Positions 1 to 5,516 of a stretch of 64,000 nt of DNA are shown here, piece after piece. The position numbers were made by a program, and so were the translations under genes. Numbering within the stretch: the first letter of the stretch is position 1; every line of letters starts with the position of its first letter. The notes under the pieces are model-generated. The model had not been told where the DNA came from and ran no database searches. It saw nothing but the letters and a program-made list of their open reading frames with translations. Source of the stretch: Hymenobacter sp. GOD-10R (GTDB lineage: Bacteria; Bacteroidota; Bacteroidia; Cytophagales; Hymenobacteraceae); assembly GCF_035609205.1 (NCBI RefSeq), contig NZ_CP141184.1:2074501-2138500 (forward strand), read 5' to 3'.

Positions 1-1748
1 CCGGGCGCGTTGAAGGAGCCCGCTTGGCCTAGGTTGTAAAACGACTGGGACTCCGCCGAAACCGCGTTTACATCAATAAAAGACGTCTCGTAGTTGTCGC
101 GCTGAACAGAGTGCAGAGCCGTAATACCTAGGTTATGTACCCCGTTGAACTTCTTATTATAAGTTAAGATGTTCTCTACCGTGTAGTTGAAGCGCTGTCC
201 GTTTTCGACGCGCGCCGTAGGAGCCCCTAGACGACGAGCGTTCGTAAACGTGCCCGTAAAGCGTCCGAAGCGCTGGTTCGTGAAGTCAGGCCCAAAGTTG
301 ACGCGGTACTTCAAACCATCGGCGATTTTCCACTCGCCGTAGATGCTGTTGAAAATGCGGACTGTTTTGGTTTGTGCGATGTTGGCGCCCGGCACTACTT
401 CTGCTGCTGGGTTGGAGCGCAGGCCATCAGGCGTAGGCAGGAATATTAGGTTGCCGTTGTCATCATACGGCTTGCCGAGTGGGTTTTCCGACAAAGCCCC
501 GCCAAACGGGTGGAAGCCACGGGCCGTGTAGTTGGGATTGGGAAAGCCATCAAAGCTAGGGTTGTTGATTGGGCTGTCGGAGCCATTGTTGAGGCTGTAA
601 ACTCCAAACGTAGACGTGCCCACCCGGATACGGTCGTTGATCTGATGGTCGAGGTTGACGCGGAAAGTAAAGCGGGTGAAGTCGGTCTGCTTCAAAATCC
701 CCTTTTCCTTGAAGTAGTTACCGGAAACCGAGAATTGCGTCTTTTCACTGCCGCCTTGCATACCCACTTGGTGGCTCTGAATAGAGCCTGTGCGCAGGAG
801 CATGGATTGGTAATCAGTGCTGCGGTTGTTGGCAATGCCATCTAGCTCAATGGCTGTGAAGGTTTTCTGGTCTGAGGCCGTCGGGTTGCTGTCGTCATAG
901 ATGCCGGCGGTCCGATAGGCTTCGCGCTTATACTCGGCAAACTGAGGGCCGGTCATGACGTCGACTTTACCAAGTGCTTGTGAGAAGCCGCCATAGCCGT
1001 CGTAGCTCACCACGGTCTTGCCGGCCTTACCGCGCTTGGTGGTCACGAGCACTACCCCGTTAGCGCCGCGCGACCCATAAATACCGGTAGCGGAGGCGTC
1101 TTTCAGGACTTCTAGGGAAGCAATATCCTGGGGGTTGATGTCGTCGATGCCACCAGCCACTGGAATGCCATCTACCACATACAGCGGGTCGTTCGAGGCG
1201 TTGATCGAGCGCCGGCCGCGGATACGTACTGTCACGCCACCGCCCGGTTCACTGCCCGACTGAATAACGTCGACACCAGCCGCGCGGCCCTGTAGCGCCT
1301 GACGGGCATTGGTGAGTGGCTGCTCCGCAATTTCCTTAGACGTAACCGAGGAAATGGCGCCCGTAGTCTGGCTTTTCTTCTGCGTGCCATAGCCCACGAC
1401 GATTACATCACCTAGGGCTTTCACGTCTTCTTTCATGGAGATGTTAATCTGCCGGCGGTTGCCAATGCTGACGGTTTGCGCCGACATGCCAATGGAGGAA
1501 AATACCAACGAGCTAGCTCCAGCGGGCACTTTCACCGTGTATTTACCGTCGCCATCGGAACTGGTGCCCGAGGTCGTGCCTTTCACCTGCACCGTCACGC
1601 CGGGTAGTCCGCTGCCTTTTTCGTCCGTGACCCGGCCACTGATTTCGGTTGTGGCTTGTTGCGCCCACGCTCTGGGGAGAGTGAGGGTTAGCAACAAGAT
1701 TAGCAATAGCGTCACTTGCCGCAAGTGACCAGAGTAGAGTACCATCAT
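1..1748 (-). CDS. SusC-like TonB-dependent outer-membrane receptor (3' end beyond window)
   Basis: This is the N-terminal part, about 580 residues, of an outer-membrane glycan importer read leftward; its C-terminal barrel lies outside the window. The reverse strand starts at a double ATG (1748 or 1745) and encodes a hydrophobic signal peptide ending in an AWAQQ-type cleavage site. A carboxypeptidase-regulatory-like beta-sandwich follows (ISGRVTDEKGSGLPGVTV), then a TonB-box-like segment, then the plug with the SusC hallmarks VVGYGTQKK, LEVLKDASATGIYGSRGANGV and VTTKRGK. SusC proteins normally work with a SusD lipoprotein; any partner would lie to the left and cannot be seen. A LacI-type palindrome lies about 190 bp upstream, in the region shared with the divergent apbE gene. 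Family assignment is firm; the substrate is unknown. Confidence 0.93.
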   Translation of the reverse strand, partial: MMVLYSGHLRQVTLLLILLLTLTLPRAWAQQATTEISGRVTDEKGSGLPGVTVQVKGTTSGTSSDGDGKYTVKVPAGASSLVFSSIGMSAQTVSIGNRRQINISMKEDVKALGDVIVVGYGTQKKSQTTGAISSVTSKEIAEQPLTNARQALQGRAAGVDVIQSGSEPGGGVTVRIRGRRSINASNDPLYVVDGIPVAGGIDDINPQDIASLEVLKDASATGIYGSRGANGVVLVTTKRGKAGKTVVSYDGYGGFSQALGKVDVMTGPQFAEYKREAYRTAGIYDDSNPTASDQKTFTAIELDGIANNRSTDYQSMLLRTGSIQSHQVGMQGGSEKTQFSVSGNYFKEKGILKQTDFTRFTFRVNLDHQINDRIRVGTSTFGVYSLNNGSDSPINNPSFDGFPNPNYTARGFHPFGGALSENPLGKPYDDNGNLIFLPTPDGLRSNPAAEVVPGANIAQTKTVRIFNSIYGEWKIADGLKYRVNFGPDFTNQRFGRFTGTFTNARRLGAPTARVENGQRFNYTVENILTYNKKFNGVHNLGITALHSVQRDNYETSFIDVNAVSAESQSFYNLGQAGSFNAP

Positions 1749-2026: not shown

Positions 2027-3031
2027 ATGTTGTACACGCTACTGCTTTTTTTAGGCTATAGCCTTTTTTCGCCTAAGCAAGCTGTTAAGCAAGTCTACCA
2101 CCTCGACGGATATGCGCAAGGCACCACGTACAGTATTACTTACTACGCCACCGATAGTACTATTACGCGGCAGCGCATAAGCCAAAAGCTAGCTGAAATA
2201 GATGCTTCGCTCTCCCTGTATGTTCCGCAGTCTTTGATCAATCAATTTAACCATGCCACCAGAGGCGTAGTAGCCGACCAGCACCTGCGCCTAGTAGTAC
2301 ACAAGGCTTTGCAGGTGTACCGAGACACGGATGGACATTTCGACGCTACAGTCGAACCTCTGGTGCGTGCCTGGGGGTTTGGAGCGCAACACGTAGAAGC
2401 GCCACCGGCACCTGCCACAATCCAAGCGCTACTGCTACAAGTGGGTTCCGACAAGATTCACCTGCGCGGCGATTCATTGGTGAAAGACCAGCCGGGCGTG
2501 CATCTCGACCTGAACGGCATTGCCCAGGGATACACCGTGGACGTGCTAGCTGAGCTTTTGGAACAGCAGCACATCCACGATTACTTGGTAGAGCTAGGTG
2601 GCGAAATCCGGGTGCGCGGCCGCAAGTGGCCTAGCGGCGAACCAATGCGCATTGGCATCGAACGGCCCGACACCACCGATTTGCCCGGCGCTGGTATGCG
2701 GCAGATTATCCGGCTGCCTGCAGGCGGGGTAACGACCTCTGGAAACTACCGCAAGTTCAAGCAATGGGGCTCAGTGAAAAGTGCGCACCTTATCAACCCT
2801 AAAACGGGTTATGCCTTTCAAAACGAAATGGTAAGTGTTACCGTGATAGCACGCGACGCCATGACTGCCGATGCTTATGATAACGCATTGATGGGCATGG
2901 GTTTAACAAAAGCGTTAACTTTCCTGAAACGTCACCGCGACTTACAAGCCTATCTGATCTACCAGCGCCCTGATGGCGCTATGGCTGATACTTCTACGCT
3001 AGGATTTCAAAAGCTAATCGTTCAACAATAA
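2027..3031 (+). CDS. apbE: ApbE-family FAD:protein FMN transferase
   Basis: The 334-residue protein belongs to the ApbE family, which uses FAD to attach FMN covalently to a Thr or Ser of exported redox proteins. Visible family signatures are DLNGIAQGYTVD (D161 onward, the counterpart of the GIAKGYAVD region), VELGGEIRVRGRKW, a TTSGNYRKF segment, and the C-terminal metal-site segment with TADA (T280-A283). The N-terminus is one hydrophobic segment without a lipobox cysteine, so the protein is probably membrane-anchored facing the periplasm. Its stop overlaps the next start (TAATG at 3029-3033), implying translational coupling with the Tat-exported oxidoreductase. That downstream protein contains a consensus ApbE target motif and is the obvious candidate substrate. 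Family call is strong; the partner is inferred. Confidence 0.92.
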   Translation: MLYTLLLFLGYSLFSPKQAVKQVYHLDGYAQGTTYSITYYATDSTITRQRISQKLAEIDASLSLYVPQSLINQFNHATRGVVADQHLRLVVHKALQVYRDTDGHFDATVEPLVRAWGFGAQHVEAPPAPATIQALLLQVGSDKIHLRGDSLVKDQPGVHLDLNGIAQGYTVDVLAELLEQQHIHDYLVELGGEIRVRGRKWPSGEPMRIGIERPDTTDLPGAGMRQIIRLPAGGVTTSGNYRKFKQWGSVKSAHLINPKTGYAFQNEMVSVTVIARDAMTADAYDNALMGMGLTKALTFLKRHRDLQAYLIYQRPDGAMADTSTLGFQKLIVQQ

Positions 3032-4248
3032 TGGACTTTCCAAGACGAGACTTTCTCAAGAAAACGGGACTGCTAACCAGTAGTCTGCTGCTCGATAGCG
3101 GGCTAATGAATGCCATAGCAGCACCTGCCGCTGGTAAGCTGCGCATCGCGGTTATTGGCTGCGGCGACCGGGGCACGGGGCTCTTGAAGATCCTGCAAGA
3201 CCTAACCGACAAGTTTGAGGTAGCAGGCCTGTGCGACGAACTGCCCTTCCGTTTGCGCGACGCGCAGAAGATAGGAGGGACGAACAAGGCCAAAGCCTAC
3301 TCCGACTATCGTGCCCTGCTCGACAACAAAGCCATCGACGCCGTCATTATTTCGGTGCCGCTGAATATGCACTTTCAAGTAGCGAAAGATGCTCTGATGG
3401 CCGGCAAGCAGGTGTACTTGGAAAAAACCATGACCTACAACATCCCGCAGGCCATGGAGTTGGTGCAGCTAGCGCAGCGGCGTCCAAACCAGATTTTGCA
3501 AGTAGGGCACCAGTACCGGTACTCACCGCTATATTACCGCGTTAAGGAGATGATTAAGCAGGGCTACCTAGGGAAGGTGACCCAAATCGACTGCCGCTGG
3601 GACCGGAATGGCAGCTGGCGGCGCCCAGTCCCAGAACCTAGCTTGGAGCGCAAAATCAACTGGCGCATGTACCGCGAGTACTCCGGGGGGCTAGCCGCCG
3701 AGTTACTCTCGCACCAAATGGACTTTATCAACTGGGCCTTCGAAACCCACGCTGATGAAGTATTCGGCACCGGGGGCATTGATTTCTACAAAGACGGCCG
3801 CGAAACCTACGACAACGTGCAGGTGATGGTGCGCTATACCAATGAAGGCATGGTAGGCAACTTTGGCGCGACCTGCGGCAATGCGCGTGATGGCTACCTA
3901 TTTAAGCTGAAAGGCACAAAAGGCACCATCTCACTGCTGGTCGACGAAGGCGTGTACTACCCCGAAAAGGAAACGCTGAAGGAGTATGGCACGGTGGACG
4001 GCGTAACCGGCGCCACCAAAATTACTTGGGACAAAAACGGCGGTATCCCCATCACGACCGGTGTGGAGCCGCTGAAAGATGGGTCGTGGTACGCGCTCAG
4101 CGACTTCTACCGAGCCGTAAACGAGAAGAAGCTTCCCGATTCGAACGTATTCACCGGTGCGCGGGCCGCTTGCACGGTGCACCTAGCGAACCAAGCCATC
4201 TACAACCACACTATTGAGAAATGGCAGCCTGAGTACAACTTTACCTAG
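3031..4248 (+). CDS. Tat-exported Gfo/Idh/MocA oxidoreductase with an ApbE-type flavinylation motif
   Basis: The 405-residue protein is a member of the Gfo/Idh/MocA sugar and polyol oxidoreductases. It begins with a twin-arginine signal (R5-R6 in PRRDFLKK), then a Rossmann fold with glycine motif GCGDRG from G43. The usual EKP motif reads EKT (E131-T133), and the likely catalytic histidine is H228 in LLSHQMD. The C-terminal sheet domain contains D323-G-V-T-G-A-T329, which matches the D-G-x-x(S/T)-G-A-T consensus where ApbE transferases attach FMN to the last Thr. The gene is translationally coupled to apbE. Tat export is known for proteins that fold around a bound cofactor before transport. 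It may therefore be a periplasmic sugar oxidoreductase with covalent FMN, with or without tightly bound NAD(P); this is inference. Confidence 0.9.
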   Translation: MDFPRRDFLKKTGLLTSSLLLDSGLMNAIAAPAAGKLRIAVIGCGDRGTGLLKILQDLTDKFEVAGLCDELPFRLRDAQKIGGTNKAKAYSDYRALLDNKAIDAVIISVPLNMHFQVAKDALMAGKQVYLEKTMTYNIPQAMELVQLAQRRPNQILQVGHQYRYSPLYYRVKEMIKQGYLGKVTQIDCRWDRNGSWRRPVPEPSLERKINWRMYREYSGGLAAELLSHQMDFINWAFETHADEVFGTGGIDFYKDGRETYDNVQVMVRYTNEGMVGNFGATCGNARDGYLFKLKGTKGTISLLVDEGVYYPEKETLKEYGTVDGVTGATKITWDKNGGIPITTGVEPLKDGSWYALSDFYRAVNEKKLPDSNVFTGARAACTVHLANQAIYNHTIEKWQPEYNFT

Positions 4249-4255
4249 GCCTAAA

Positions 4256-4370
4256 CGCCCCGGTCCGACGCCCAAGCGCCCGACCGGTATCGTTGAACGA
4301 GCCATCACAACCATGATGTGCAAACGTCAGCAACGATACCGGTCGGACGCTTGGGCGTCGGACCGGGGCG
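4256..4370. terminator. Long (40-bp stem) inverted repeat between convergent genes
   Basis: Arms 4256-4295 and 4331-4370 are complementary at 39 of 40 positions, with a 35-base loop. The repeat starts 8 bases after the oxidoreductase stop and ends 19 bases before the stop of the convergent NIPSNAP gene, so it could serve both as a terminator. A 40-bp GC-rich stem is longer than a typical intrinsic terminator, so it may instead be a palindromic repeat element. A short T-rich stretch (ATTTTATTTG) follows on the plus strand. Confidence 0.7.
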
Positions 4371-4389
4371 ATTTTATTTGATCTGGTCC

Positions 4390-5196
4390 TTAGATATCGG
4401 AGTAAGTAGCGGGGTGCAGCAGGTACACATCCATGTGCTGCATGTTATTCGCGTACTCGGGCATCGCTTTCATCTTTGCCCATTCGGGATCAGCACCGAA
4501 GGTCTTCCAGTGGGCTTCCTGCTCGGCTTTGTTTTCGAAGGCAGATATATACATCAAGTTGGGCATCTTGTTGCCAGATACCACCTGCCCGCAGAAAATA
4601 GTGTTGAAGTTCAGGCGCTTGAAGATGCCTAGCTCCCCATTGTTGAACTGTGCTACCTTGTTCTGGTGCAGCTTTTCGGAGGCGCTTTCGTAGCTGCGCA
4701 ACTCATATACTCGTTCCGCCGGGCCCGATTTCAGCGCTGGCATGTGAAGGGTAGGTAGGCCCGTGAAAGCTAGCATCGATATGCCCTCCAAGCGGCTGTA
4801 CACAGGTTTGTCGAAGGCAGCATTTAGGTAGTCCTGCGCGGCCGTTTGGTACTGCTTGTCTTTCTCTAAGTCAGCGTCAAGTTTCAGATACTGGTCTGCG
4901 GAAGTACACGGAACAAAAACGAAAACGAGCTGCTCGGCTGGAGTAGGTGCGTTTGCATCAGTGCTAGCAATGGGCTTAAAGACGCCGACTTTGCTGATGC
5001 CGGCCCGGTGCAGCGCTGGTACATACGCTTGCTGGAGGTAGTTGTCGAGGCGCTGCTCCTGCTCCTTGGTTTGCAGATGATAAATCTTGAGTTGGTAGAA
5101 GTCGCGCTTCGGGGCCGCGGCAGTGCCGACCAAGGGGCCACTTAGTCCGAGCAGGACGAGCGAAAGAATAAGCAGCGTAGATTTCAGGTGCTTCAT
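4390..5196 (-). CDS. Exported NIPSNAP-family protein
   Basis: The protein has about 268 residues when started at the ATG at 5196, which places a good signal peptide first (MKHLKSTLLILSLVLLGLSG). The frame is open further upstream to 5289, but that extension lacks a sensible signal. Two ferredoxin-like NIPSNAP repeats are visible: FYQLKIYHLQTKEQEQRLDNY with VGVFK, and VYELRSYES with FNNGELGIFKRLNFNTIFCG and MYISAFENKAEQEAHW. Such proteins are common beside sugar oxidoreductases in Bacteroidota, but their activity is not established. It is convergent with the Gfo/Idh/MocA gene. Confidence 0.88.
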   Translation of the reverse strand: MKHLKSTLLILSLVLLGLSGPLVGTAAAPKRDFYQLKIYHLQTKEQEQRLDNYLQQAYVPALHRAGISKVGVFKPIASTDANAPTPAEQLVFVFVPCTSADQYLKLDADLEKDKQYQTAAQDYLNAAFDKPVYSRLEGISMLAFTGLPTLHMPALKSGPAERVYELRSYESASEKLHQNKVAQFNNGELGIFKRLNFNTIFCGQVVSGNKMPNLMYISAFENKAEQEAHWKTFGADPEWAKMKAMPEYANNMQHMDVYLLHPATYSDI

Positions 5197-5516
5197 AGCA
5201 TTTATTGGGTTAGGTGAGTTTGGGTGCGACGTTGCGAAAAGTGTACGCGCCAGCAAGGCAAGCCAGGAGTTCACTTCGGAAAAGCTCATATCACAATCGA
5301 TTGCATCGATTTTTCCTAGCTTTAAGCCTCTAGTTTACGGCTAAAACGATTGCGGAAGCAAGGATGGCAGCTACTTTAGGGCAGTACTCGGAGGTTTTCT
5401 GCGATACTATTGGGTAGCACAAGGGCAGTAAGTGGTGGCGTTCTTTCCCGACAGGTTGCCCCACGACCTAGCTAGGTAATAGAAGCAGAGGACTTGACTT
5501 TCACTATTGTCAACGA

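What the first reader, a model, noticed from the sequence alone, without database searches (positions are those of the whole stretch)
2027..4248. Coupled ApbE flavin transferase and Tat-exported Gfo/Idh/MocA protein carrying DGVTGAT: a candidate covalently flavinylated periplasmic sugar oxidoreductase
The two genes overlap (TAATG at 3029-3033). The oxidoreductase has a Tat signal and, at residues 323-329, D-G-V-T-G-A-T, matching the known ApbE target consensus in which FMN is linked to the last Thr (as in NqrC and RnfG). Gfo/Idh/MocA enzymes normally use NAD(P), which is not freely available in the periplasm, so covalent FMN there would be a new cofactor arrangement. Motif, overlap and export signal are read directly; flavinylation itself is inference. 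The motif lies in the C-terminal sheet domain, not in a canonical FMN-binding domain, so it could be a chance match.
Basis: partly seen in the sequence, partly recalled or inferred. Interest (0 to 1): 0.82.

Follow-up and report, generated by a model that had tools for sequence, protein, structure and literature searches.

The report
Sugar-oxidising enzyme with flavin attachment site
In soil and water Bacteroidota, an exported sugar-oxidising enzyme carries a conserved, apparently floppy attachment tag for a flavin and is encoded beside the enzyme that attaches flavins to such tags, which suggests a covalently bound flavin in a family thought to use only NAD or NADP.

Summary
In detail: apbE 2027-3031 overlaps a Tat-exported Gfo/Idh/MocA oxidoreductase (GFO) 3031-4248 by one base, and residues 323-329 read DGVTGAT. 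It is not chance: in 240 listed homologues D, G, V and the acceptor T are invariant while neighbouring columns vary. ApbE lies within 400 nt of the GFO gene in 62 of 80 loci; 29 of 29 motif genomes without a neighbouring apbE have one elsewhere. FMN_bind, the classical substrate domain, is absent from 51 of 51 paired genomes searched; in 12 of these the linked ApbE is the only one. In AlphaFold2 models of two homologues 45% identical, the motif is the only run of three or more residues below pLDDT 50 outside the signal region. NAD-site and catalytic residues are kept; 3-keto-glycoside hydrolases are common neighbours. Best reading: ApbE attaches FMN to T329 of a periplasmic glycoside dehydrogenase, as a tethered electron relay. 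A deeper clade pairs a divergent ApbE with IPIGGA[ST]W at the same place (9 of 10 loci). Flavinylation is untested; my searches found no report of a Gfo/Idh/MocA ApbE substrate.

The parts
2027..3031 (+). apbE, FAD:protein FMN transferase with a hydrophobic N-terminus (by eye); member of a clade found with this oxidoreductase
   Evidence: Pfam ApbE 1.5e-78; ApbE chains in the PDB, best 7.4e-47; tree clade SH-aLRT 99
3029..3033 (+). TAATG overlap of apbE stop and oxidoreductase start (coupled genes)
   Evidence: sequence; ORFs
3031..4248 (+). Tat-exported Gfo/Idh/MocA oxidoreductase, proposed covalent FMN protein
3043..3060 (+). twin-arginine motif RRDFLK of the export signal
   Evidence: sequence; R5, R6, F8 invariant in 36 sequences
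3157..3174 (+). GxGxxG of the Rossmann NAD(P) site (GCGDRG, residues 43-48)
   Evidence: G43, G45, G48 among the most conserved columns of 240
3421..3429 (+). EKT with the catalytic Lys132
   Evidence: K132 invariant in 36 and 102 sequences and among the most conserved of 240; catalytic role recalled from the family
3700..3714 (+). E224-L-L-S-H228, the conserved active-site acid/histidine segment
   Evidence: E224 and H228 invariant; role recalled from the family
3997..4017 (+). DGVTGAT, proposed flavinylation motif in a loop predicted flexible; acceptor Thr329 at 4015-4017
   Evidence: conservation; pLDDT below 50 at 323-330
1..1748 (-). SusC-like TonB-dependent receptor (start at 1748, runs off the window), head of the divergent sugar operon SusC-SusD-3-keto-disaccharide hydrolase-second GFO-DUF6807
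   Evidence: L133
4253..4373 (.). 43-nt inverted repeat with 35-nt loop between the convergent oxidoreductase and NIPSNAP genes, probable bidirectional terminator

Best explanation
The exported oxidoreductase is a periplasmic glycoside (probably C3) dehydrogenase of the Gfo/Idh/MocA fold that keeps a bound NAD(P) and carries FMN phosphoester-linked to Thr329, put there by the neighbouring ApbE. The FMN sits on a flexible loop and works as a tethered arm: it takes electrons from the NAD(P)H formed by sugar oxidation and hands them to an acceptor (quinone, cytochrome or oxygen), so that the trapped nicotinamide can turn over outside the cytosol. The 3-keto product goes to the 3-keto-glycoside hydrolase of the same locus. 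Shown by sequence: gene coupling, conserved motif, conserved cofactor and catalytic residues, association with ApbE, loop predicted unstructured, 3-keto hydrolase neighbours. Inferred: the FMN adduct itself (about 0.85 likely), C3 specificity, the NAD-to-FMN relay, the final acceptor.
For: Motif fits D-x-x-[ST]-G-A-[ST] (PMC12052999 section 8). D323, G324, V325, T329 invariant in 240 of 240 listed homologues, position 4 is T 113, S 114, A 13, while columns 319-321 and 330-332 vary. apbE within 400 nt on the same strand in 62 of 80 loci. 29 of 29 motif genomes without a neighbouring apbE have one elsewhere. 21 of 21 genomes with a GFO hit have apbE (7 of the 21 hits are of deeper kinds without the canonical motif) against 171 of 275 without a hit (Fisher p 7e-5, not corrected for kinship). 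No FMN_bind domain in 51 of 51 paired genomes; 12 of them have a single ApbE, the linked one (11 within 400 nt, one at 1.4 kb), and these 12 also lack DUF3570 and DUF2271. In the window's genome the only other ApbE lies beside its only DUF3570, a proven substrate family (PMC8238504 passages). The 64 linked ApbEs and 15 others form one clade (SH-aLRT 99). Loci with acceptor T: 89 of 89 lie in genomes with an ApbE of this clade or its sister group; with acceptor S: 1 of 5 (my tally). Motif loop is the only non-signal run of three or more residues under pLDDT 50 in two models. A PF06439-type 3-keto-disaccharide hydrolase lies within six genes in 73 of 93 loci (two cluster members and the window genome's copy checked by Pfam). 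Nearest folds include sulfoquinovosidase, levoglucosan dehydrogenase, DgpA and periplasmic GFOR. Deeper clade: ApbE adjacent in 9 of 10 GGA[ST] loci.
Against: No biochemical evidence. 28 of 240 homologues break the canonical motif (DGVAGAT 12, DGVSSAT 8, DGVTGST 5, DGVTSAT 2, DGVARAT 1). 17 of 80 core loci and 12 of 13 relatives from the phylum sample have no apbE within 8 kb or the nearer contig end. The dedicated ApbEs all carry Asn where the metal-site Thr is usual (78 of 78; Thr in 10 of 10 of the sister group; metal role recalled). In a Pedobacter-like group the unlinked ApbE sits beside another Tat-type GFO gene without the motif. Three more distant GFO genes (L125-L127) have a neighbouring ApbE but no GA[ST] at the aligned place. 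No frequent redox partner stood out in the 25 neighbour clusters listed; oxidase-like genes (cbb3 type by eye) lie 4-6 genes away on the other strand in 4 related loci and once elsewhere. Distance from T329 to the nicotinamide was not measured.
Confidence: 0.65

Rival explanations
1. DGVTGAT is an invariant structural or catalytic loop (for example closing over substrate) that happens to look like an ApbE motif; apbE is linked for another reason.
For: Kept in homologues without a neighbouring apbE; non-canonical variants keep D, G, V and T. A loop that orders only on substrate binding could also score low pLDDT.
Against: Loop is below pLDDT 50 in models of two clades; no genome without any apbE among 29 searched; paired genomes lack FMN_bind; acceptor T/S goes with ApbE clade; GA[ST] recurs at the same place with another ApbE in a distant clade.
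Confidence: 0.1
2. T329 is flavinylated, but FMN is itself the primary oxidant and the Rossmann site is vestigial or structural, so the enzyme is a plain flavin-dependent sugar dehydrogenase or oxidase.
For: Nicotinamide is scarce in the periplasm; Agrobacterium-type glycoside 3-dehydrogenases are flavoproteins (both recalled).
Against: GxGxxG, K132, E224 and H228 are conserved, as expected if hydride still goes to NAD(P); periplasmic GFOR, with bound NADP (recalled), is among the nearest folds.
Confidence: 0.13
3. ApbE here acts on a different, unseen target or hydrolyses FAD, and the pairing is only operon economy.
For: Asn replaces the metal-site Thr in the dedicated clade; ApbE also lies beside GFO genes without the motif.
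Against: 12 of 51 paired genomes have the linked ApbE as their only one and lack three known substrate families; the motif-bearing protein is the gene next door.
Confidence: 0.08
4. The motif is a chance match.
For: Pattern hits in the genome do not exceed the control.
Against: Invariance of D, G, V, T across 240 homologues and linkage in 62 of 80 loci.
Confidence: 0.02

Closest known systems
ApbE substrates with FMN_bind domain (NqrC, RnfG, NosR, PceC, PplA) and DUF2271/DUF3570
   Same: apbE in or near the operon, extracytosolic protein, D-x-x-[ST]-G-A-[ST] or [ST]GA[ST] with Thr/Ser acceptor (PMC8238504 and PMC12052999, passages and sections 8 and 11)
   Different: No FMN_bind, DUF2271 or DUF3570 domain in this protein; acceptor lies in a loop of a NAD(P)-fold dehydrogenase
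Flavodoxin_4 and FMN_red ApbE candidates (PMC11334425, passages)
   Same: A known enzyme fold that gained an ApbE-like motif next to apbE
   Different: Those folds already bind flavin non-covalently; Gfo/Idh/MocA binds nicotinamide
Periplasmic glucose-fructose oxidoreductase (GFOR, 1ofg/1h6d)
   Different: GFOR recycles bound NADP with a second sugar (recalled), not with a flavin
BT2157-BT2160 type 3-keto-glycoside pathway and NAD-dependent sulfoquinovosidases
   Same: GFO genes with a PF06439 hydrolase in a SusC/SusD locus (PF06439 role from PMC9007349 passages); sulfoquinovosidase 8qc5 has the highest Z
   Different: NCBIfam BT_2158 model scores far below its cut-off here (85 of 750 bits); I know of no ApbE or flavin motif reported in those (recalled)

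Membership tests
ApbE FAD:protein FMN transferase | PF02424 domain above cut-off | tested here: met
   264.5 bits, cut-off 25.6
ApbE FAD:protein FMN transferase | catalytic His and metal-site residues | tested here: inconclusive
   His (HLINPKTG) and Asp kept; usual Thr is Asn in 78 of 78 of the clade; residue roles recalled or from PMC12052999 passages
ApbE substrate protein | D-x-x-[ST]-G-A-[ST] motif | tested here: met
   DGVTGAT 323-329; 212 of 240 homologues canonical
ApbE substrate protein | apbE linked or present in the genome | tested here: met
   62 of 80 loci within 400 nt; 29 of 29 others in trans
ApbE substrate protein | FMN covalently bound to the acceptor | not testable with these tools
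   needs mass spectrometry
FMN_bind domain proteins (PF04205) | PF04205 domain | tested here: not met
   not among the Pfam matches of the protein at E 0.01; 0 of 51 paired genomes
Gfo/Idh/MocA oxidoreductases | Rossmann NAD-binding plus C-terminal alpha/beta domain | tested here: met
Gfo/Idh/MocA oxidoreductases | NAD(P) actually bound | not testable with these tools
   only the GxGxxG could be seen
BT_2158 glycoside 3-dehydrogenase (NF058561) | score above equivalog cut-off | tested here: not met
   85 bits, cut-off 750
3-keto-glycoside pathway locus | PF06439 hydrolase with GFO genes | tested here: met
   L133 hydrolase 250 bits; cluster in 73 of 93 loci

The most novel reading that the evidence does not exclude
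An old, widespread alliance of ApbE with exported Gfo/Idh/MocA dehydrogenases exists in at least two forms (DGV[ST]GA[ST] with ApbE that has a hydrophobic N-terminus; IPIGGA[ST]W with a signal-less ApbE that would load FMN before Tat export). In it a covalent FMN on a mobile loop re-oxidises NAD(P)H trapped in the same protein: a two-cofactor nicotinamide-flavin swinging arm for sugar oxidation outside the cytosol, and a new class of ApbE substrate.
Probability: 0.5. Interest if true: 0.9.

Novelty: new variant of a known kind. Interest (0 to 1): 0.85.

Why it matters
How periplasmic Gfo/Idh/MocA dehydrogenases get rid of electrons without free NAD(P) is, to my knowledge, an open problem of the 3-keto-glycoside pathways. 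A tethered FMN would answer it, would add a large dehydrogenase superfamily to the ApbE substrates, and would explain apbE genes in Bacteroidota genomes that lack the classical FMN_bind substrates. It allows a cheap direct test: co-express, look for flavin fluorescence, mutate one Thr.

Tried and rejected
Chance match of the motif: rejected on conservation and linkage, although the genome-wide pattern count alone does not exceed its control. A DGISGAS hit at G000:C1:6621341 lies in an 833-aa open frame of a sugar locus by eye; it was taken as chance without further test.

In the second model the low run is 317-322 (DGVSGA; the acceptor T323 is just outside) and a helix of doubtful confidence is drawn at 320-328.

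A strict rule 'motif only with adjacent apbE': rejected. 17 of 80 core loci and 12 of 13 phylum-sample relatives (L111, L113-L123; L112 has it) have none within 8 kb or the nearer contig end.

The second-GFO column in the split table was faulty, because the main gene fell in the same cluster; it is not used.

The acceptor T/S tally: T rows are the window, 63 core loci with a linked apbE (62 within 400 nt and L017 at 1.4 kb), G292 (by score 478 only, not in the tree), 14 unlinked (L162 partial; L145 is the neighbour of a paralogue, L032, in the same genome as L020) and 10 phylum relatives whose ApbEs form the sister group = 89. S rows are L061, L064, L070, L071, L093; L070's genome has the ApbE (L166). 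If only the dedicated clade is counted, the 10 relatives do not have it. The Fisher p of 2.6e-6 used 79 T rows without those 10 and is not corrected for kinship. The name NQR-type for the sister group rests on one gene beside L143 that looks like NqrF by eye.

Third ApbE-linked GFO type (L125-L127): no canonical acceptor; unexplained. L189 reads AGPSW there.

Papers: passages only of PMC8238504, PMC11334425 and PMC9007349; passages and sections 8 and 11 of PMC12052999; all other papers as search listings (two searches listed none). Supplements could not be read. The work on BT2158-BT2160 and on sulfoquinovosidases is recalled; BT2157 is mentioned in PMC9007349.

Full report
What is there. apbE (2027-3031) and a 405-aa Tat-exported Gfo/Idh/MocA oxidoreductase (3031-4248) overlap by one base; residues 323-329 are DGVTGAT. 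The nearest named relative among the loci is Hymenobacter crusticola (95%). The pair is divergent from a sugar operon on the other strand: SusC (start at 1748), SusD, a PF06439 3-keto-disaccharide hydrolase, a second GFO protein and DUF6807, read from the surrounding genome (L133).

Conservation. In 240 homologues (the best 120 of 3402 hits to the window protein and the best 120 of 3959 to a relative) D323, G324, V325 and T329 are invariant; position 326 is T 113, S 114, A 13; G327 is kept in 229 and A328 in 235; 212 of 240 are canonical for D-x-x-[ST]-G-A-[ST]. The columns just outside vary. Identity to the window falls to 40-47% in the second set, so the motif has outlived much of the sequence. 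In 80 genome loci, the best of 287 relatives, the motif is DGVTGAT 69, DGVSGAT 5, DGVTGAS 4, DGVAGAT 1, DGVSSAT 1. Of 13 further relatives from the phylum sample, 12 are canonical.

Linkage to apbE. Of 80 loci, 61 have apbE just upstream on the same strand, 1 just downstream, 1 at 1.4 kb, 17 none within the flank held. The 17 genomes, and 12 more from the phylum sample, have apbE elsewhere (29 of 29). Over 296 genomes of the phylum, apbE occurs in 192, and in 21 of 21 with a GFO hit, 7 of them deeper kinds without the canonical motif.

No other known substrate. The 51 genomes searched (50 of 63 linked loci given, one not held, plus G000 and G292) have no FMN_bind domain (the same search rings in 4 of 14 control genomes). 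Twelve of them have a single ApbE, by position the linked one (11 within 400 nt, L017's at 1.4 kb), and these 12 lack DUF3570 and DUF2271 too. Other substrate kinds were not sought. The window's genome has two ApbEs; the other sits beside its only DUF3570, a family shown to be flavinylated (PMC8238504, passages).

Co-evolution. A quick tree of 117 ApbEs puts the 64 linked ApbEs and 15 others in one clade (SH-aLRT 99), next to ten ApbEs of the phylum relatives (joint clade SH-aLRT 100, no bootstrap). By my tally 89 of 89 loci with acceptor Thr lie in genomes with an ApbE of this joint clade, against 1 of 5 with acceptor Ser. Within one genus, G080 has Thr and the dedicated ApbE, G138 has Ser and lacks it. 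The dedicated clade has Asn at the usual metal-site Thr (78 of 78), a possible change of metal use or activity.

A deeper clade. Relatives at 170-227 bits to the window protein have IPIGGA[ST]W at the aligned place. Of 120 homologues (the best of 2016 hits) 116 keep GGA[ST]W and the acceptor is S or T in 120 (S 76, T 44). Of 10 such loci, 9 have a divergent ApbE beside the gene; the tenth, L188, is a gene with an in-frame stop in the match. Three of these ApbEs that were looked at show no signal peptide by eye. L189 reads AGPSW with ApbE beside it, and L125-L127 have ApbE but no GA[ST] there. So the ApbE partnership is wider than the canonical motif.

Pathway. A PF06439-type hydrolase lies within six genes in 73 of 93 loci (two members and the window genome's copy checked by Pfam). 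PMC9007349 (passages) names a 3-ketotrehalose hydrolase (BT2157) and an endo-xanthanase/lichenase as the characterised proteins of that kind and proposes a 3'-ketolactose hydrolase in Caulobacter. This makes glycoside C3 oxidation the likeliest reaction (inference). Among the 25 most frequent neighbour clusters no general redox partner was seen; cbb3-oxidase-like genes, by eye, lie nearby in 5 of 93 loci, 4 of them closely related. The final acceptor is unknown.

Literature. The motif rule and mutational tolerance come from PMC12052999 section 8. 'MocA' does not occur in the main texts of the 2021 eLife, 2024 mSystems and 2025 JBC papers. Searches for ApbE with MocA, and for FMN transferase with Gfo Idh MocA, gave one unrelated paper and none. 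This covers only the open-access library held; supplements were not readable.

Verdict. Not shown: any adduct, any activity, bound NAD(P), or the distance between flavin site and nicotinamide.

Noticed in passing
4253-4373: 43-nt inverted repeat, 95% complementary, 35-nt loop, between the convergent oxidoreductase and NIPSNAP genes; probable bidirectional terminator.
   Followed up: partly
L153, L154, L155, L157, L171, L162, L169: In a Pedobacter-like group the unlinked dedicated apbE sits next to another Tat-type GFO gene without the motif, and in most of these loci a further exported protein.
   Followed up: partly
L125, L126, L127: A third GFO type with ApbE beside it carries GDMPYRG near where the acceptor motif would be.
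   Followed up: partly
2882-2884 (codon of ApbE residue 286, N in ADAYDNA): All 78 dedicated-clade ApbEs aligned have Asn where the sister group has the metal-site Thr.
   Followed up: partly
L131 (G000:C1:4679314-4681774): The genome's second ApbE lies beside a DUF3570 gene, a known ApbE substrate family.
   Followed up: yes
L115, L118, L121, L122, L029: cbb3-oxidase-like genes, by eye, near the oxidoreductase gene in 5 of 93 loci; possible electron sink or coincidence.
   Followed up: no
4390-5289: NIPSNAP-domain protein on the minus strand beside the pair.
   Followed up: no
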